The notes beneath the pieces are model-generated. The model ran no database searches and had not been told where the DNA came from. It worked only from the letters and a program-made list of their open reading frames with translations. This document shows positions 75-7,863 of a stretch of DNA of 7,863 bases, in pieces. Each line of letters begins with the position of its first letter. The stretch's first letter is position 1. The position numbers were made by a program, and so were the translations under genes. The DNA is from Candidatus Dormiibacterota bacterium (lineage in GTDB: Bacteria; Chloroflexota; Dormibacteria; UBA8260; Bog-877), in NCBI GenBank assembly GCA_003164475.1, contig PLTL01000029.1, positions 9,815 through 17,677 on the forward strand, written 5' to 3'.

Positions 75-350
75 ATGGCGTGGAAACGGTGGGCGCGAGC
101 CGCAGGGACGGCGGTCGTCGCTTCGAGCACGCTCGTCCTGGCAGGGTGCGGTGGCCTGAGTGCCAGTTCCACCTGCACGGACTACCTGAATGCGGCATCC
201 ACGGATCAGAGCGCCGTCTTGTCGAGTCTGGCCGTGCAGTACCACCAACCCGAGCTGGCCACCATCCTGGGCACCGAGGAGGTGAGCTACACGTGCGCGG
301 AGTACCCCAGCTGGACCTTGGGGCACGTCGCCCAGGACTTCGGCGGGTAG
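75..350 (+). CDS. Small secreted lipoprotein, HdeA-like cysteine spacing
   Basis: This 91-residue protein has a typical lipoprotein signal: basic N-terminus (K4, R5, R8), hydrophobic segment 12-22 and lipobox L22-A23-G24-C25, so it is predicted to be exported and lipid-anchored at C25. The mature part is only about 67 residues and holds two more cysteines, C34 (in TCTDYL) and C74 (in YTCAEYP), which could form one disulfide. A small helical domain with one Cys pair of this spacing, including a C-terminal Cys-Ala...Pro...Leu pattern, resembles HdeA-like acid-stress chaperones found in actinobacterial lipoproteins; that link is from memory and is inference. The start is supported by GGAGG at 60-64. 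It stands alone, with about 200 nt before the next gene. Real gene: fairly sure; function: unknown. Confidence 0.8.
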   Translation: MAWKRWARAAGTAVVASSTLVLAGCGGLSASSTCTDYLNAASTDQSAVLSSLAVQYHQPELATILGTEEVSYTCAEYPSWTLGHVAQDFGG

Positions 351-556: not shown

Positions 557-1009
557 GTGTATTGCGACAGTTGCGGGAAGCCCCTGCGTCACCAGGCTCA
601 ATTCTGCTCGAGCTGCGGTGTCGCGGTTGATCCCCGCTTCGACCCGGAGTTCGACACAGCGGATGCGGCTCCGTCGGCGCCGGATGGTGCCGATGAGCAG
701 GACGAGCCGCACTGGGGCCCGAGCCTACCGCGCGTTCATTGGCCGGAATGGAGTCCTCGACGGATACGCGATCCCGAGAACGCCGACCTGGGCGAGGTCA
801 CCGTCGATGTGGATCGTGTCGTCTGGGCGTGGCGCTGCGACGGTTGCGGCTCCTCGAGCAACGATGCGCAGGACTTCGAGCGCATCCATGGCGATCCGCT
901 CCATCGACGCTGCCCGTGCGGGGAGACCGTGGAGCGTACCCCGGCCGTCTTCTGCGGCAGCTGCGACACCCTGATCCTCCTGCGGAACACAGACCCCGAT
1001 ATCGACTGA
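557..1009 (+). CDS. Zinc-ribbon protein, MYCDxCGxPL family (copy A)
   Basis: The start is taken as GTG 557: GGAG at 547-550 is spaced 6 nt, and the product then begins (M)YCDSCGKPL, aligning with the starts of the genes at 1890 and 3696. An ATG four codons upstream (545) is the alternative. The protein is 150 residues. An N-terminal zinc ribbon has C3-x2-C6 and C17-x2-C20. An acidic, low-complexity linker runs from about 25 to 55, then a Trp-rich segment (53-66). A second cysteine-rich region has C94-x2-C97, C119-x-C121 and C133-x2-C136, enough for one or two more zinc sites. There is no signal peptide or membrane segment, so it is predicted cytoplasmic. The downstream membrane gene is dead, so this copy may have lost its partner. 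The molecular function is not recognisable from sequence. Confidence 0.8.
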   Translation: MYCDSCGKPLRHQAQFCSSCGVAVDPRFDPEFDTADAAPSAPDGADEQDEPHWGPSLPRVHWPEWSPRRIRDPENADLGEVTVDVDRVVWAWRCDGCGSSSNDAQDFERIHGDPLHRRCPCGETVERTPAVFCGSCDTLILLRNTDPDID

Positions 1010-1040
1010 TACCGACCGCGGTGCACGCTGGCCTCTGCCG

Positions 1041-1518
1041 ATGAGCTGGGACGGTTACACCATCTGCTCCGTTCTGAGCGGAGCCCTGCTGATCCTTGTT
1101 TGCCCTGCTGCTGGGGCAGTCGGTCCGTGACCGGTTCTGGGCGGTCGTGGTGGGCGCCTTCTTCGTCATCTACGGTGTCTACGTCGCCAACCAGACGAGC
1201 GGTACTCAACTCCTCCCGGTGTGAATCTTCGTCCTCCCCTTCGCCGTGCCGGTTTCCTCCTGTACGCCCTGGTGACCACCGCCCGGAAGAGGAGCGCGCG
1301 CGTTGGCGGTACCGGGCCCTCTCCGACCGTCTCTTCCCGGCCGCTGAGGGCGGCTGCACCTCGGCCTTTCCGACGTGGGCCGACGAGCAGCGGGCCTCGA
1401 TGACCACGTCGGGAGGCGCGAGAGCTCGGCGTTGGCTGGCCGGAGCGGTGGTGGCTGCAGCCGTTCTCTCGGGCCCCAGGCACGGTTCTGTCCCGCGTGC
1501 GGTAGCTGCACCGAATAG
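1041..1518 (+). pseudogene. Decayed copy of the membrane/zinc-ribbon gene at 3151-3684
   Basis: Read with frame changes, this stretch follows the intact protein at 3151-3684. It starts MSWDGYTICSVLSG (intact: MTQWDGYTVFSVLSG) and then carries a net 5-nt loss somewhere in 1099-1122. The shifted frame resumes as RDRFW...IYGVYVANQTSG (intact: RDRFW...IYGFYVANQTSG). A TGA at 1222-1224 stands where the intact copy has the TGG of SVWIFV. One nt is missing near 1246-1250, after which the frame continues GFLLYALVTTARK. A further frame change precedes the last part, SLGPQARFCPACG (intact: SLRPQARFCPQCG), ending at TAG 1516-1518. The first cysteine of the zinc ribbon is also gone. At least three frame changes plus one nonsense codon make this a firm pseudogene, not a sequencing slip. 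It lies 31 nt after the copy A zinc-ribbon gene, as the intact version follows the copy B gene. Confidence 0.9.
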
Positions 1519-1889
1519 ACAGCGGTTAGTCCCATCCCGCCCGCCACCGAGAGTTGGTCCACCGGGTCTTCCGCCGCCGGGGAGAGCTCCCCATTGCTCA
1601 ACGATCATCCCAGCAGTACAGTGCCGGCAGTCCGGTGATGGGCGTCCGATCCGCAGGCCCGAGTGACAGTACAAGAGAGGGGCACCGACCAGCATGAGCA
1701 CCTGGGGCCGAAAGCCTCAACGATCCCGATGGCAGGCGACCGGCACCCGCCATCAGATCTTCCCGCCGCCGCAGGAGGCCCTTGAGGCGAGTGGAGCGCG
1801 ATTCGGTGTTGGCCCCGAGGGTGTCAACCGAGCCCAAACCGGCAGGGGCAGTCCGACCGCGGGTGGGAAGATGCGCCGAGGAGGAGGAG
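1519..1889 (+). other. Gene-poor gap between copies A and B
   Basis: No convincing gene is seen here on either strand. It holds the promoter-like site at 1594-1622. An open frame from ATG 1694 (MSTWGRKPQ...) lacks a well-placed ribosome binding site, has mediocre third-position GC and runs into the start of the next gene in another frame. The gap is about 370 nt, whereas the equivalent junction after copy B is only 11 nt, so material was inserted here or lost there. Confidence 0.5.
1594..1622 (+). promoter_or_regulatory. Putative promoter for the copy B zinc-ribbon/membrane operon
   Basis: TTGCTC (1594-1599), a 17-nt spacer and TACAGT (1617-1622). The -10 region shares the 10-mer GTACAGTGCC with the promoter-like site at 457-486. 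A transcript from about 1630 would have a leader of about 260 nt before ATG 1890. Confidence 0.45.
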
Positions 1890-3020
1890 ATGTACTGCGA
1901 TCAGTGCGGTCAACCGCTGTCTGACCAGTCGACGCGCTGCCCCGCATGTGACACCGCGGACCCGGCCATTAGCCCACCCCTGCGATTCCCCACGCCCACC
2001 TCGGCCCTGGTCGCCGACCCGTACCAACCACTCCCGGGCCTGGCGCCGCTGATGCCTGTTGACGATCCGGGTTTCCAGCCAGAAGAGCGATCTGGCCTGT
2101 CGCCATCGCAGATACGGGGGTTGCGGCGGCTCACCTCCCTGGGACTCGCTGATCCCTGCCGCGTGCTGCTCACCGGCGACGGCAATGCGCCGGAGGCCAC
2201 GATGGTCGTCGCCATGCTGGCCCGCGCTGCGGACGATCGCAGGTTCCGCACCGAGCTCGTGAGCGCCATCGCCACGCGGGATTTCGGCAGCGTTCTGCGG
2301 CACCTTGAGTCCGACGATCGGCCAAATCCGGCTGCGGTACCCGCTGATCCGGCGCTGCAACAGGGCGCTCAGATCGATCACGCCGAGGCTCAGGCTGACG
2401 CGGAAAGCGTCCAGGAGGACGTCCCGCCGCGCCTCTGCGACGCCTGTGGCAGCACGCTCATCCCCGACGCCCGGTTCTGCGAGGCGTGCGGTCGTTCCCT
2501 GCCGTCTCCCCTTCCCGCATCGCAACCCAGCGCGACCGGGGCTCCGGTGAGGGCCGCTGTGGCCCTGACGAGTGCGCGTGAGCCTCTTTCGGCCGCGGCC
2601 CGTACGCCCAACTCCCGGAGCTGTCCCAATGCCGAGTGCCAGGCGTATCGTGCGCCGACCTCGGACGGATTCTGCGCGAACTGTGGAACCGCCACGGTGG
2701 ACGCGCCCATCACCGCCGGCGCCCTGACGGCAACGGCAGCAGCACGGAGCGGTTTCCCACCCAACGTGGCGTATCCAAGTCCGCGCCCGGCTGGAGCACC
2801 GCTGCGACGTCCCAGGTATAGCAATGCCCGCCGCATCTCCTATTCGTGCCTGTGGGCCTTCTACACCGTGGTCTTCGTCATTGGCTTCTTTGCCGCCGCC
2901 GCGCAAGGCGATGCCGGCGGCGCGCTGGTCTCCCTGGCGATCGCCGCCGCGACGGGGACCTACGTCTGGCGAATCTGGACGTATCGGTCGAAGCATCTTT
3001 GGATGGTCATCTTCTTCTAG
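1890..3020 (+). CDS. Triple zinc-ribbon protein with two C-terminal membrane segments (copy B)
   Basis: The protein is 376 residues. ATG 1890 is preceded by a strong GAGGAGGAG ribosome binding site. The product starts MYCDQCGQPL, as in the other family members; the open frame extends further upstream, but without coding character. Three zinc ribbons are visible: C3/C6 with C17/C20; C183/C186 with C197/C200; and C245/C250 (CPNAEC) with C262/C265. Between the first and second is a long stretch (about 65-140) with helical, charged character and no known motif, followed by an acidic patch near 163-177. After a Pro/Ala-rich linker come two hydrophobic segments (about 319-338 and 344-362) and a short basic tail, so the ribbons are probably cytoplasmic on a membrane anchor. 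It is followed 130 nt later by the membrane/zinc-ribbon gene, probably in one operon. Function unknown. Confidence 0.85.
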   Translation: MYCDQCGQPLSDQSTRCPACDTADPAISPPLRFPTPTSALVADPYQPLPGLAPLMPVDDPGFQPEERSGLSPSQIRGLRRLTSLGLADPCRVLLTGDGNAPEATMVVAMLARAADDRRFRTELVSAIATRDFGSVLRHLESDDRPNPAAVPADPALQQGAQIDHAEAQADAESVQEDVPPRLCDACGSTLIPDARFCEACGRSLPSPLPASQPSATGAPVRAAVALTSAREPLSAAARTPNSRSCPNAECQAYRAPTSDGFCANCGTATVDAPITAGALTATAAARSGFPPNVAYPSPRPAGAPLRRPRYSNARRISYSCLWAFYTVVFVIGFFAAAAQGDAGGALVSLAIAAATGTYVWRIWTYRSKHLWMVIFF

Positions 3021-3097
3021 AAGGGGGCGGAGCGCAGGCTTTGACACCACGGACGGAACCCACCGAGCGCGACCCGCTGAGGTCAGATGCTCGAAGG

Positions 3098-3154
3098 ATG
3101 AGCCGAGCCTCCCTCTCGCCCGCGCGGCCATCCCGACTGCTGGGCCACTCATGA
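3098..3154 (+). other. Possible 18-codon leader ORF coupled to the 3151 gene
   Basis: ATG 3098 opens a short frame (MSRASLSPARPSRLLGHS) whose TGA overlaps ATG 3151 as ATGA. The gene at 3151 has no clear ribosome binding site of its own, so re-initiation from this frame is conceivable. The GAAGG before ATG 3098 is too close to be a good site. This is weak evidence and the overlap could be chance. Confidence 0.2.
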
Positions 3155-3684
3155 CTCAGTGGGACGGGTACACCGTCTTCTCCGTTTTGAGCGGAGTTGC
3201 GCTCGTCATTATGGCGCTGATCCCAACGGTGGTCCCCCGGACGCGCGACCGCTTCTGGCTGTTCCTTGGCGGAGCAGGGCTAGCCATCTATGGGTTCTAT
3301 GTTGCGAACCAGACGTCAGGCATCTACTTCTTCTCGGTGTGGATCTTCGTCATTCCGTTCGTGGCGGTGGGCTACGTGATCCTCTCGGCCATGGAGAGGC
3401 GCTCGCGAGCTGCAGGCGGCGCCACAGCAGCGCCGCGTTCGAGCGATTATCCGGCGTCCGTACCACCAAAGCGACAGGTTCAGCGCGCGCCAGCCGGTCG
3501 GACGCAGCCGCCACCGGTTTCGCGCGCCACCACTCCCCCTGCGACTCGTGGCATCGGCTCCGTCGGGAGGGACCACGACCCCCTTTCCTGCCGGGGGTGC
3601 GGCAGGTCGTTACGACCTCAGGCGCGCTTCTGCCCGCAATGCGGTGTGCGCGCAGTTCACTACCCGGCGGGGGATCCCCGTTGA
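3151..3684 (+). CDS. Three-span membrane protein with a C-terminal zinc ribbon
   Basis: The protein is 177 residues. It starts MTQWDGYT, then has three hydrophobic segments (about 9-28, 36-52 and 58-80). The last ends in basic residues (ERRSR), suggesting that the tail is cytoplasmic. A Pro/Ala/Arg-rich linker (about 85-140) leads to a zinc ribbon, C147-x2-C150 and C161-x2-C164, in the form SCRGCGRSLRPQARFCPQCG. Zinc binding is inferred from this CxxCG spacing. The start matches that of the decayed copy (MSWDGYT at 1041), which supports ATG 3151 although no clear ribosome binding site precedes it; translation may be coupled to upstream reading. The next reading frame (3696) begins 11 nt after its stop. 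No catalytic motif is seen. It probably acts at the membrane together with the protein encoded at 1890. Confidence 0.85.
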   Translation: MTQWDGYTVFSVLSGVALVIMALIPTVVPRTRDRFWLFLGGAGLAIYGFYVANQTSGIYFFSVWIFVIPFVAVGYVILSAMERRSRAAGGATAAPRSSDYPASVPPKRQVQRAPAGRTQPPPVSRATTPPATRGIGSVGRDHDPLSCRGCGRSLRPQARFCPQCGVRAVHYPAGDPR

Positions 3685-3695
3685 CAGGAGAGGAG

Positions 3696-3767
3696 ATGTA
3701 CTGCGATTCGTGTGGGCAGCCGCTGGCTGAGACACCCAACAGGATGCGACAAGGAGATGTTCGATGA
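3696..3767 (+). pseudogene. Truncated third MYCDxCGxPL zinc-ribbon start (23 codons)
   Basis: ATG 3696 has a good ribosome binding site (GGAGAGGAG) and encodes MYCDSCGQPLAETPNRMRQGDVR, then stops. The first ten residues match the starts at 557 and 1890 almost exactly, but only the first CxxC knuckle is present, so it cannot form the complete ribbon. The expected second knuckle falls where the sequence reads AGGATGCGACAAG. The related gene has CGCTGCCCCGCATGTGAC there, so a small frame-changing deletion is a reasonable explanation. Its TGA overlaps ATG 3764 of the lipoprotein by ATGA. Either it is a dead gene left in the operon, or it survives as a short translated leader that feeds ribosomes to the lipoprotein gene. 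Confidence 0.65.
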
Positions 3768-4036
3768 TGACCAGAACCCTCGCTGTGCTCGCAACGGCTA
3801 GCATGGCCATGGCAGTGAGTGGCTGCGGGAGTGGTGACGCGAGGGCGTATGACATCTCGCCGATCTTCCCGCTCTCCTCAGATAAGTGCGCGAAATACGA
3901 TGGCGTCCAGCAGGGATCGGGTATCTATGCAACCTGCATGGTTACCTTGGCCGAGTGCCAGAGAGCCGCCGCCGATTGGAGAGCGGCAATGGAGAGCTCC
4001 GACGTCCCCGATGCAATCGAGTTCAGTTGCCAGTGA
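3764..4036 (+). CDS. Small cysteine-rich lipoprotein
   Basis: The protein is 90 residues. A hydrophobic signal segment (about 6-18) ends in the lipobox V18-S19-G20-C21, so it is predicted to be exported and lipidated at C21. The mature part has four more cysteines (C42, C58, C65 and C89), an even number compatible with two disulfides outside the membrane. AAGGAG at 3751-3756 is spaced 7 nt from ATG 3764 and decides the start; the adjacent ATG 3767 is an alternative that changes one residue. The start overlaps the stop of the truncated zinc-ribbon frame by 4 nt, so the two are probably translated together. It is not obviously homologous to the lipoprotein at 75-350. A similar set of short Streptomyces lipoproteins may exist, but no function is known to me. 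Confidence 0.8.
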   Translation: MMTRTLAVLATASMAMAVSGCGSGDARAYDISPIFPLSSDKCAKYDGVQQGSGIYATCMVTLAECQRAAADWRAAMESSDVPDAIEFSCQ

Positions 4037-4458: not shown

Positions 4459-4725
4459 ATGCGGTATACCTGTCAGGTCTGCGGCGCCAAGCCGGCAACC
4501 GTGATCACAAGCCGCCACCACGTCGGCATGATCGTCCGCAGGCGAAGCCCGACGACGTCGGGCCTGCGGTGCGTTGACCGCACCCGCCGCCAGCTCACCG
4601 CCGACCTGGCCTCGACCTTGTTGCTGGGCTGGTGGGGGGCGATCTCCCTCTTCATCAACGGGCTGTTCATCGTGCCCAGCCAGGGCCCCAAGCCCGCGCC
4701 ACTGATTAGCCGGAGGCATTCCTGA
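4459..4725 (+). CDS. Short zinc-ribbon-like protein with a GWWG membrane segment
   Basis: The protein is 88 residues. The N-terminal knuckle C5-x2-C8 (CQVCGAKPA) is followed by a stretch ending in GLRCVDR, then LTADLASTLLLGWWGAISLF (hydrophobic, about 50-74). This order (CxxCGxxPA, HxGMI, a second CxxC, then TAxT...GWWG) is one I recall from small actinobacterial membrane proteins; that match is from memory. In those the second knuckle is usually C-x2-C. Here C38 is present, but position 41 is Arg (CGC, where TGC would give Cys), so one expected zinc ligand is missing. The tail is short and basic. Its TGA shares one base with ATG 4725 of the next gene (TGATG), so the pair is translationally coupled and probably works together. 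Confidence 0.7.
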   Translation: MRYTCQVCGAKPATVITSRHHVGMIVRRRSPTTSGLRCVDRTRRQLTADLASTLLLGWWGAISLFINGLFIVPSQGPKPAPLISRRHS

Positions 4726-5480
4726 TGCCGTTTAACATCATCACAATCCGGGAAGCGGAGGATCAGGGCCCGGATGACCTGTACCCGATCGTGGGGGACG
4801 AGCATCTCATCCGGCTCGACCCCGAGGAACTACCGGCGCAGCGCTACACGGCCAAGGCCATCATCGCCAAAGAATGGACGGGGCGCCGCATGCTCTCCAT
4901 CGGCCGGGTTGAGGACAGCCACATCGAGATGTACGTAACCGACTGCCGGATGGCGGTCGCCTCCGAGAAGTTCCTCAAAGGCGGTACTTGGATCGGTTTC
5001 GGCGCCGGCGGAATCGCCGTGGCGATGACCGCCACCGCAGTGAGCAAGATCAGGGCCCGGGTTCGCCGTCGGGGCAAAATGCTGGTCGGCCAGGTGCGCT
5101 ACCCCTGGCTGAAGCAGATCGGCTTTCGCCCCCGGCGAGCCCTGCGCAACGACGGCCAGGTTCGCTTCATCATCGAGGATGGCACCCAGGCTAGTCGGCG
5201 CACCGTCGTTCTCGACGTCGGGCTGACCAGCAACTACGATCCCCGCGAGGTCGCTACCAGGATCCTGCGGCGCGCCGTGCAGTACCGGCTCGCCCACGAT
5301 GTCGGGACTGCATCCTCGGAGGTCCAGGCGGCCTTCATGGCCCTCAGTGACCCCCCGCATCTCGACGACCCTCTACCGGGCAGGTTCGCTCTGTACACGT
5401 TGCCGACGTACCTCCCCGTCGGCAGTGACACGGTGCTGAACAGCCCGGCAATGGCCGAGAAAGCGGCGCCGATCGAGTGA
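4725..5480 (+). CDS. Conserved hypothetical protein with a possible PH-like domain
   Basis: The protein is 251 residues and is not recognised by name. GGAGG at 4712-4716, 8 nt before ATG 4725, fixes the start, which overlaps the upstream stop by one base. The N-terminal part has a strand-rich feel, with IEMYVTDCRMAVASEKF (67-83), similar to the 'Y-vTd-R' strand of bacterial PH-like/GRAM folds. A Gly/Ala-rich hydrophobic stretch follows (about 87-107), which may be buried or a single membrane segment. It is bounded by a strongly basic patch (KIRARVRRRGK, 108-118), then VGQVRYPWLKQIGF (121-134). The C-terminal part (after about 170) is probably helical, with a disordered tail. No catalytic motif is visible. 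Coupling with the GWWG protein suggests a small membrane-associated complex; that is inference. Confidence 0.8.
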   Translation: MPFNIITIREAEDQGPDDLYPIVGDEHLIRLDPEELPAQRYTAKAIIAKEWTGRRMLSIGRVEDSHIEMYVTDCRMAVASEKFLKGGTWIGFGAGGIAVAMTATAVSKIRARVRRRGKMLVGQVRYPWLKQIGFRPRRALRNDGQVRFIIEDGTQASRRTVVLDVGLTSNYDPREVATRILRRAVQYRLAHDVGTASSEVQAAFMALSDPPHLDDPLPGRFALYTLPTYLPVGSDTVLNSPAMAEKAAPIE

Positions 5481-5767: not shown

Positions 5768-6157
5768 GTGGCGCTCCTCACCCGGGCCACCGACGGCATC
5801 CGCGGCGCCCCCTTCACCCATGCCGACTACAGCTGGCTGGTCGAGGACCAGGAGCACGTGCGCAGCGTTGCCGTCGACACCCTGAGCCAGCTCGCCGAGC
5901 TCCACGCCGCCGCCGGCGACCTTGACAAGGCCATCGTGACCGTCGAGCAGGCGCTCACCCTCGACCCCGACCCGATCGAGGACCTCTTCCGCCAGCAGAT
6001 GCTCTGGCAGCACCGGCTCGGACGCCCCCAGGAGGCACGCGACGTGTACCGGCAGCTCGTCCGTCAGCTCTCCGACCGCTGCGACCGCACCCCCAGCGAG
6101 GAGACCACAGCACTCCTCGAGTCCCTCGGGGGTGAGCCCAGGGTGGTAGTCCAGTGA
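5768..6157 (+). pseudogene. C-terminal fragment of a BTAD-domain transcriptional regulator
   Basis: The readable part is 129 codons from GTG 5768, but no ribosome binding site precedes it and the true start is probably missing. The sequence is a bacterial transcriptional activation domain (BTAD), the helical TPR-like module of SARP/AfsR-type and LysM-BTAD regulators. It shows RATDGIRGAPF...DYSWLVEDQEHVRSVAVDTLSQL (6-42), a TPR-like helix pair ELHAAAGDLDKAIVTVEQAL (44-63), then DPIEDLFRQQMLWQHRLGRP (68-87), EARDVYRQLVRQL (89-101) and the typical end TPSEETTALLESL (108-120). Full-length family members carry a DNA-binding or LysM/membrane N-terminal part of several hundred residues, absent here. 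It is therefore most likely a 5'-truncated remnant. A stand-alone BTAD protein is the alternative. The coding frame is otherwise intact, with strongly GC-biased third positions. Confidence 0.75.
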
Positions 6158-7428: not shown

Positions 7429-7626
7429 GTGCACCTAGGCAGACGATGGCGCGCACCATTTGCCGCGTTTGCGCCTCCGTGTAGGGTTCGTGTCGGATTC
7501 CCGTACGAATCATGTAGGTCTTACGCGGCACATGCCGCAATCGCTTGCGACAGGGCGGGCAGGCATGGCAGGATGCGTCGGAGCCGGGCTACAGGGGTCC
7601 GGGGGAGCAAGGGAGGAGCCTCGTGA
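7429..7626 (+). CDS. Possible small ORF overlapping the start of the lipoprotein
   Basis: GTG 7429 has an excellent ribosome binding site (AGGAGG at 7418-7423, 5-nt spacing) and opens 65 codons. The TGA overlaps GTG 7623 of the next gene (GTGA). The product (MHLGRRWRAPFAAFAPPC...) is Arg-rich and uses codons rare in such genomes (CTA, AGA, AGG, TTT, GTT), with no domain or signal I recognise. Another short frame starts inside it at ATG 7446 (MARTICRVCASV, stop 7482-7484). The region also has two small stems, GATTC/GAATC (7496-7500, 7507-7511) and GCGGC/GCCGC (7525-7529, 7534-7538). It may be an untranslated or leader-peptide-bearing 5' region of the lipoprotein gene rather than a protein gene. 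Confidence 0.3.
   Translation: MHLGRRWRAPFAAFAPPCRVRVGFPYESCRSYAAHAAIACDRAGRHGRMRRSRATGVRGSKGGAS
7612..7616 (+). promoter_or_regulatory. Ribosome binding site of the 7623 lipoprotein
   Basis: GGAGG, 6 nt before GTG 7623. It decides this start, since no in-frame alternative is as well placed. Confidence 0.75.
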
Positions 7627-7863
7627 AGCACGCTCGGGGCTGGGCGGCTCCGCAACCCCATCGCTCGGTGCGGCGTCGTCAAGTTCCCCAGCTCCTCGCG
7701 CTGCTGTCTGCCGCCGCGGCCCTCGGCCTGGCAGGCTGCGGCTCCTCGGCGCGCGCCCTGCCAACGTTGCGACCCACGAGCAGCCCCACGCCCACCGCGT
7801 CGGTGAGCGCCTCTCCCACGCCCGATGTGAGCGACGCTGCCGTAATCGCGGCCTACGACGCTT
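7623..7863 (+). CDS. Lipoprotein, 3' end beyond the window
   Basis: The open frame from GTG 7623 runs to the window edge (80 codons seen). The basic N-terminal region is long (R5, R14, R17-R19), followed by a hydrophobic stretch (22-36) and lipobox L36-A37-G38-C39, so the product is predicted to be exported and lipid-anchored at C39. After the cysteine comes a Ser/Thr/Pro-rich linker (about 51-68) typical of actinomycete lipoproteins, then the beginning of a helical domain (DAAVIAAYDA, 71-80). The A-x-x-A-A-Y pattern is common at the start of small NTF2-like or related lipoprotein domains, but too little is visible to assign one. GGAGG at 7612-7616 supports the start. Regulation may involve the repeat region at 7287-7415. 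Confidence 0.8.
   Translation, partial: MKHARGWAAPQPHRSVRRRQVPQLLALLSAAAALGLAGCGSSARALPTLRPTSSPTPTASVSASPTPDVSDAAVIAAYDA

What the first reader, a model, noticed from the sequence alone, without database searches (positions are those of the whole stretch)
557..3767. Tandemly duplicated zinc-ribbon/membrane module in three states: alive, dead and truncated
Three frames begin with nearly the same ten residues (MYCDxCGxPL at 557, 1890 and 3696), and two membrane/zinc-ribbon genes follow them (1041 decayed, 3151 intact). The order ZR gene, TM-ZR gene, ZR gene, TM-ZR gene, ZR start suggests duplication of a two-gene unit, then divergence: the first ZR gene is soluble with one extra Cys-rich region, and the second has three ribbons and two membrane spans. 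Both genes of copy B carry ribbons on membrane anchors. No known pathway with this pairing comes to mind. It could be a membrane-bound scaffold or redox/zinc sensor. The pairing is seen; the function is inference.
Basis: partly seen in the sequence, partly recalled or inferred. Interest (0 to 1): 0.7.

Follow-up and report, generated by a model that had tools for sequence, protein, structure and literature searches.

The report
Decaying membrane zinc-ribbon gene cluster
A stretch of DNA from an uncultured actinobacterium-like microbe holds several related, partly broken genes for small membrane proteins that carry zinc-binding knobs; it is a rare, unnamed gene family rather than a demonstrated new system.

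Summary
The observation largely holds. Three genes begin alike: GTG-YCDSCGKPL at 557, MYCDQCGQPL at 1890, MYCDSCGQPL at 3696. That DNA motif occurs in 0 of 198 sampled genomes of the phylum. TM1 (1041-1518) is a decayed relative of TM2 (3151-3684). ZR3 (3696-3767) is a stub: in a relative (P0003) the same spot, after a TM2-like gene, carries a ZR gene 63% identical to ZR2 over 144 residues. Duplication of a whole two-gene unit is not shown: ZR1 matches ZR2 mainly in its first ~30 residues, and TM1 is no nearer to TM2 than to a Streptomyces homologue. The three-helix membrane module recurs sparsely in Streptomyces, Lentzea and Actinomadura, but at none of 8 genome loci (about five lineages) was a zinc-ribbon motif found beside it. 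ZR2 matched only four database proteins; all 12 ribbon cysteines are kept in a 51%-identical relative. Best reading: membrane-tethered cytoplasmic zinc-ribbon adaptors undergoing birth and death of copies; partners unknown. Zinc ribbons on membrane anchors are a known kind; these families are unnamed. The cross-genus 'system' claim is not supported.

The parts
75..350 (+). LP1: predicted small lipoprotein (LAGC, Cys25), with two further Cys in the mature part
   Evidence: ORF; aligns to the C-terminal part of the protein beside the Actinomadura membrane module, 0 of 5000 shuffles (post hoc; BLASTP did not find it); no Pfam family at E<=1
557..1009 (+). ZR1: 150-aa zinc-ribbon protein without a membrane segment, GTG start with GGAGG upstream; N-terminal CxxC-10-CxxC ribbon plus a second Cys-rich region (Cys 94, 97, 119, 121, 133, 136)
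1041..1518 (+). TM1: decayed copy of the three-helix membrane module with zinc-ribbon tail
   Evidence: 68% DNA identity to TM2 over 204 nt; frameshift and in-register stops
1890..3020 (+). ZR2: intact 376-aa protein; N-ribbon (Cys 3,6,17,20), helical domain (about 64-141), second ribbon (183,186,197,200), third ribbon (245,250,262,265), C-terminal hydrophobic hairpin (about 312-363)
   Evidence: Pfam DZR 36.4 bits over cut-off 27.3; model; all 12 ribbon Cys kept in P0010
3151..3684 (+). TM2: intact 177-aa protein; three membrane helices (6-23, 31-52, 64-88), Pro/Ala-rich linker, C-terminal ribbon CxxC-10-CxxC (147-164)
   Evidence: P0001 99% and P0002 76% identical
3696..3767 (+). ZR3: 23-codon stub of a third ZR gene; its stop codon overlaps the start of LP2
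   Evidence: P0003 carries a longer ZR gene at this place; 41-nt block shared with ZR2
3764..4036 (+). LP2: predicted small lipoprotein (VSGC, Cys21), apparently coupled to the ZR3 stub; not detectably related to LP1
   Evidence: ORF; LP1-LP2 3559 of 5000 shuffles

Best explanation
This is a lineage-specific cluster in an uncultured actinobacterium-like organism in which two kinds of membrane-linked zinc-ribbon genes alternate and are being gained and lost. TM2 anchors one cytoplasmic zinc ribbon to the membrane through three helices and a flexible Pro/Ala-rich linker. ZR2 anchors three cytoplasmic ribbons and a small helical domain through a C-terminal hairpin. Most likely both act as membrane-tethered adaptors: the ribbons and the helical domain hold partner proteins at the inner face of the membrane. 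TM1 is a dead relative of TM2, and ZR3 is what is left of a third ZR gene. Shown: gene architecture, decay, truncation, conservation of the ribbon cysteines, TM-ZR adjacency in one relative. Inferred: the organism group, cytoplasmic side (Arg-rich ends flank the helices), adaptor role, co-function of the two proteins.
For: Decay of TM1. The stub's place is filled by a longer ZR gene in P0003. All 12 ribbon Cys of ZR2 are kept in 51%-identical P0010, while its two other Cys (90, 320) are not, which argues for selection on zinc sites. The four ribbon Cys of TM2 are kept in 76%-identical P0002. Three predicted helices in TM2 and a helical domain (block pLDDT 67-79) in ZR2. The membrane module also occurs without a ribbon and with other tails (P0005, P0007, L001-L004), so it behaves as an exchangeable anchor. 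No enzyme family reaches its curated cut-off in ZR1, ZR2 or TM2 in Pfam or NCBIfam, and PADLOC gives nothing at E<=0.1.
Against: At none of 8 genome loci of the membrane module is a zinc-ribbon motif beside it, so ZR2 and TM2 may not work together at all. ZR2 and TM2 models are of low confidence (mean pLDDT 47 and 59). No partner is identified. P0003's TM part leaves its frame before its ribbon, so either that copy is broken too or its assembly has an error. TM1 is not detectably closer to TM2 than to L001. Sub-threshold enzyme-like hits exist, e.g. ADK_lid 17.1 of 26.6 bits on the second ribbon of ZR2; I read them as generic ribbon likeness.
Confidence: 0.5

Rival explanations
1. Independent neighbours: ZR1, ZR2/ZR3 and TM1/TM2 are separately acquired accessory genes in a variable region, and their adjacency carries no functional meaning.
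For: No zinc-ribbon motif beside the TM module at 8 of 8 genome loci, with differing neighbours; ZR1 resembles ZR2 mainly at the start; TM1 is as far from TM2 as from L001; the region also holds a BTAD/TPR fragment and genes without a family.
Against: P0003 keeps TM2-like and ZR2-like genes adjacent in another assembly; the shared start motif is absent from 198 sampled genomes.
Confidence: 0.3
2. A sensing or conflict module: the three-helix protein is a membrane effector or sensor run by cyclic-nucleotide or other signalling, and in this lineage the zinc-ribbon proteins replaced the usual regulators.
For: CRP-like regulators lie within about 2 kb of the module in Streptomyces L001 and Actinomadura L004 (cNMP_binding by Pfam; look-alikes by eye in L002 and L019); a TIR-NTPase-TPR gene in Lentzea; LP1 resembles the C-terminal part of the Actinomadura neighbour; sparse distribution, 2 of 396, 2 of 150 and 4 of 199 genomes, centres included.
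Against: L020 and L021 have a SecDF_P1-type lipoprotein instead; the cyclase-like frame has no Pfam hit at E<=0.1; no cyclase or CRP family among the 10 window proteins scanned; no PADLOC match for ZR1, ZR2 or TM2; the LP1 likeness is post hoc and BLASTP missed it.
Confidence: 0.1
3. The ZR3 'stub' is a working leader peptide whose translation is coupled to LP2, not debris.
For: Shine-Dalgarno-like GGAG before an intact start, and a stop that overlaps the LP2 start.
Against: A longer ZR gene occupies the same place in P0003; only the first 10 to 16 residues are ZR-like.
Confidence: 0.1

Closest known systems
Pfam DZR (PF12773) / Zn_Ribbon_1 (PF13240) zinc-ribbon proteins
   Same: ZR2 passes both curated cut-offs; ribbons of ZR1 and TM2 have the CxxC-10-CxxC spacing
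   Different: ZR1 and TM2 stay below the cut-offs; membrane parts and helical domain match no Pfam family at its cut-off
Small actinobacterial three-helix membrane module (unnamed; L001-L004 and others)
   Same: TM2's membrane part aligns with L001-L004 at 37-45% identity, with invariant Y...VA.Q..G...F...IF..P
   Different: These genome homologues lack the ribbon tail and a zinc-ribbon neighbour
Generic N-ribbon membrane proteins, e.g. the two neighbouring ones in L016 (1495-2040, 2004-2984)
   Same: N-terminal ribbon, membrane segment, two such genes side by side (by eye)
   Different: One matches ZR1 at 35% over residues 1-111, E 3e-7, likeness mainly in the ribbon by eye; no three-helix module seen there
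DUF7315 (PF23997)
   Same: P0005, a relative of TM2, matches it at E 8.5e-4 over its membrane part
   Different: Below the curated cut-off (20.2 of 27 bits); TM2 itself is not listed for it
VTC transmembrane subunits (7ytj chain A)
Effector-associated domains of conflict systems (PMC7159879, passages read)
   Same: Small helical domain without enzyme match in ZR2, membrane proximity
   Different: No sequence match; no core component of those systems among the 10 window proteins scanned

Membership tests
DZR / zinc-ribbon proteins | Passes the curated Pfam cut-off | tested here: met
   ZR2: DZR 36.4 of 27.3 bits; Zn_Ribbon_1 29.6 of 25
DZR / zinc-ribbon proteins | TM2 tail passes a curated cut-off | tested here: not met
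   Best DZR 22.9 of 27.3 bits, although the four Cys are in place
Actinobacterial three-helix membrane module | Sequence alignment over the membrane part with the invariant residues | tested here: met
Conserved ZR-TM two-gene system | Adjacency kept across genera | tested here: not met
   0 of 8 genome loci have a zinc-ribbon motif beside the module; adjacency seen in P0003 only; the contigs behind the other database proteins could not be read
Effector-associated domain (EAD) proteins | Sequence or fold match of the ZR2 helical domain | tested here: inconclusive
   No Pfam match to the helical part; Foldseek 22 matches, none with E<=0.001; the second look barely covered that part
HdeA/HdeB (for LP1) | Pfam HdeA match | tested here: not met
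   LP1: 0 families at E<=1; the L004 protein only 13.6 of 22 bits
Known anti-phage defence systems | PADLOC model match for ZR1, ZR2 or TM2 | tested here: not met
   0 families at E<=0.1 for each
Zinc-binding protein | Metal content of purified protein | not testable with these tools
   needs experiment

The most novel reading that the evidence does not exclude
An uncharacterised membrane adaptor system in which a three-helix membrane module, elsewhere found near cyclic-nucleotide-type regulators, has been rewired to multi-ribbon zinc proteins carrying a small helical interaction domain, with an outside-facing lipoprotein (LP1) as sensor; repeated gain, truncation and death of copies would reflect an arms race.
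Probability: 0.07. Interest if true: 0.6.

Novelty: new member of a known kind. Interest (0 to 1): 0.3.

Why it matters
It describes an unnamed, sparsely spread actinobacterial three-helix module and a near-orphan multi-ribbon membrane protein that keeps its zinc sites, and shows one locus with living, dead and truncated copies side by side. As it stands it is a modest annotation gain: no function is shown, and cross-genus adjacency, the feature that would make it a system, was looked for at 8 genome loci and not found.

Tried and rejected
Own-genome search: no genome is held for the window. Plasmid DNA search and plasmid protein searches for TM2 and ZR2: no match. Viral contigs with ZR2, membrane alignment A3 and ZR2 alignment A2: no relative; one locus (L015), 31% in residues 138-206 inside a 508-aa frame in a gene row that looks phage-like by eye, rejected as chance. 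ZR2 in the four genomes that hold a TM module: 0 of 4. ZR2 C-terminal hairpin in the class: 0 of 296, without a positive control. ZR1 in the phylum: 1 of 198, L016, an N-terminal ribbon protein whose rest looks unrelated by eye. The 4725 protein: 0 of 198 at E<=1e-10, without a positive control. LP1 profile A8: 2 of 149, one being the genome it was built from; the other (L024) was not resolved. Likeness of the ZR2 helical domain to the N-terminal part of the L004 neighbour: 2650 of 5000 shuffles reach it, rejected. The LP1-L004 likeness was first seen by eye and only then tested; BLASTP did not find it, so the 0 of 5000 is post hoc. An extended tblastn match of P0003 to bases upstream of ZR2 (1701-1889) was read as a weak extension of the ZR match and not pursued. 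Fold searches gave nothing usable. Literature: five searches, listings seen; passages read of PMC8612252 and PMC7159879; no listed title or abstract start describes this gene pair. Gene lists of the genome loci come from my own frame picker by codon-position G+C, not from an annotation.

Full report
What is in the sequence. The window is 66.6% G+C; the organism is taken to be actinobacterium-like from its composition and from where the membrane module's relatives lie, and no genome is held for it. On the + strand lie LP1 (75-350, lipoprotein), ZR1 (557-1009), TM1 (1041-1518, broken), ZR2 (1890-3020), TM2 (3151-3684), ZR3 (3696-3767, stub) and LP2 (3764-4036, lipoprotein). The start motif is real and unusual: 0 of 198 genomes of the phylum carry its reverse-translated form. 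At 557 the start codon is GTG.

Living, dead, truncated. TM1 and TM2 share 68% of 204 nt (E 2e-12). TM1 has a frame-shifting 5-nt gap and TGA codons in TM2's register at residues 64, 84 and 117, the last two in a poorly aligned part. ZR2 and ZR3 share 25 of their first 30 bases, and 12 of the next 42. P0003 settles what ZR3 is. This 291-aa database protein, from a 32.7-kb contig, runs from a TM2-like gene through a frameshift into a gene that starts MDCDQCGQPL at the place of the ZR3 start (88% over 65 residues in that frame) and goes on as a ZR2-like protein (63% over 144 residues). So a third ZR gene exists in a relative and only its first codons remain here. P0011, on a 28-kb contig, matches ZR2 at 98% over 38% of its length and then leaves its frame. 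So two of the few relatives also look broken, unless those assemblies carry indel errors; I cannot tell which.

Was a two-gene unit duplicated? TM1 and TM2 are related, and both have the ribbon tail, which the genome homologues L001-L004 lack. ZR1 and ZR2 share 50% over 30 residues at the start; elsewhere the matches are ribbon to ribbon or weak. In the readable pieces, TM1 matches TM2 at 24 of 39 residues, P0002 at 25 of 39 and Streptomyces L001 at 24 of 38. Decay inflates the distance of TM1 from all, so an old duplication and separate acquisition both remain open.

The proteins. ZR2 has three ribbons (Pfam DZR 36.4 bits over a cut-off of 27.3), a helical domain at about 64-141 with block pLDDT 67-79 from residue 71 to 140, and a C-terminal hydrophobic hairpin; the whole model averages only pLDDT 47 on a three-row alignment. 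In P0010 (51% identical) all 12 ribbon cysteines are kept and the two other cysteines are not. Two searches of the 5.8-billion-protein collection found only P0009 (the same protein but for a residue), P0010, P0011 and P0003; only the 7,997 candidates sharing most words were scored. TM2 has three predicted helices (mean pLDDT 59) and a ribbon tail; relatives are P0001 (99%), P0002 (76%), P0003 (57% over 76%) and five others at 42-55%. Those five others show no ribbon in the alignment.

Is the pairing conserved? A scan with TM2 of the collection of one genome per species (84,980 species by the tool's description) returned 10 loci; 4 match the membrane part (L001, L002 Streptomyces; L003 Lentzea; L004 Actinomadura) and 6 match only the ribbon. 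Profile searches found the membrane module in 2 of 396 genomes of the phylum, 2 of 150 of the Actinomadura family and 4 of 199 of the Streptomyces genus, centres included and partly the same genomes. At 8 loci (L001-L004, L019-L022; L001/L002/L019 and L020/L021 are alike, so about five lineages, and L022 is a weak homologue) a C..C-8to25-C..C motif in any frame of 40 codons or more was found twice, each more than 4 kb from the module (L004 at 10359, L022 at 606), never beside it. Neighbours differ: CRP-like regulators within about 2 kb in L001, L002, L019 and L004; a TIR-NTPase-TPR gene in L003; a SecDF_P1-type lipoprotein upstream in L020, and one of like sequence in L021 (the Pfam names come from the L001, L003, L004 and L020 genes, the rest by eye).

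How it probably works. The arginine-rich ends next to the helices (VVPRTRDR and MERRSR in TM2; RRPRYSNARR and WRIWTYRSK in ZR2) suggest that ribbons and linker are cytoplasmic; this is the positive-inside rule, recalled, not tested. With no enzyme family at its cut-off and no PADLOC match, the likeliest role is a membrane-tethered adaptor. That step is inference. A possible outside part is LP1, whose mature domain resembles the C-terminal part of the protein beside the Actinomadura module (0 of 5000 shuffles, post hoc; BLASTP did not find it).

Verdict. The sequence observation is good and the stub and pseudogene are now explained. The claim of a new cross-genus system is not supported. I score it as an uncommon, unnamed member of a known kind: membrane-anchored zinc-ribbon proteins.

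Noticed in passing
L001:3520-4203, L001:4647-5756, L004:5029-5733, L019: Within about 2 kb of the stand-alone three-helix module in Streptomyces and Actinomadura lie CRP-like regulators, and in Streptomyces also a frame that looks by eye like a class-III nucleotide cyclase (no Pfam hit at E<=0.1).
   Followed up: partly
L004:6301-6999: 232-aa membrane protein directly after the Actinomadura module; its C-terminal part resembles window LP1 and weakly HdeA.
   Followed up: partly
L003:3069-5978: TIR-NTPase-TPR gene divergent from the Lentzea three-helix module.
   Followed up: no
L016:1495-2040 and 2004-2984: Two neighbouring frames that each begin with a zinc ribbon and carry a membrane segment: side-by-side ribbon-membrane genes exist elsewhere too.
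   Followed up: no
4459-4722: 88-aa protein with an N-terminal CxxC and a hydrophobic segment, ending just before the 4725 gene; another small Cys-bearing membrane protein in the same region.
   Followed up: no
4725-5480: 251-aa protein of no known family with a glycine-rich stretch; no relative in 198 genomes of the phylum at E<=1e-10.
   Followed up: partly
5768-6157: BTAD/TPR piece of an AfsR/SARP-type regulator without the rest of the gene, probably a fragment.
   Followed up: no
3764-3767: Stop of the ZR3 stub overlaps the LP2 start, a translational-coupling arrangement.
   Followed up: no
7623-7863: Start of another predicted lipoprotein (LAGC lipobox) running off the window end.
   Followed up: no
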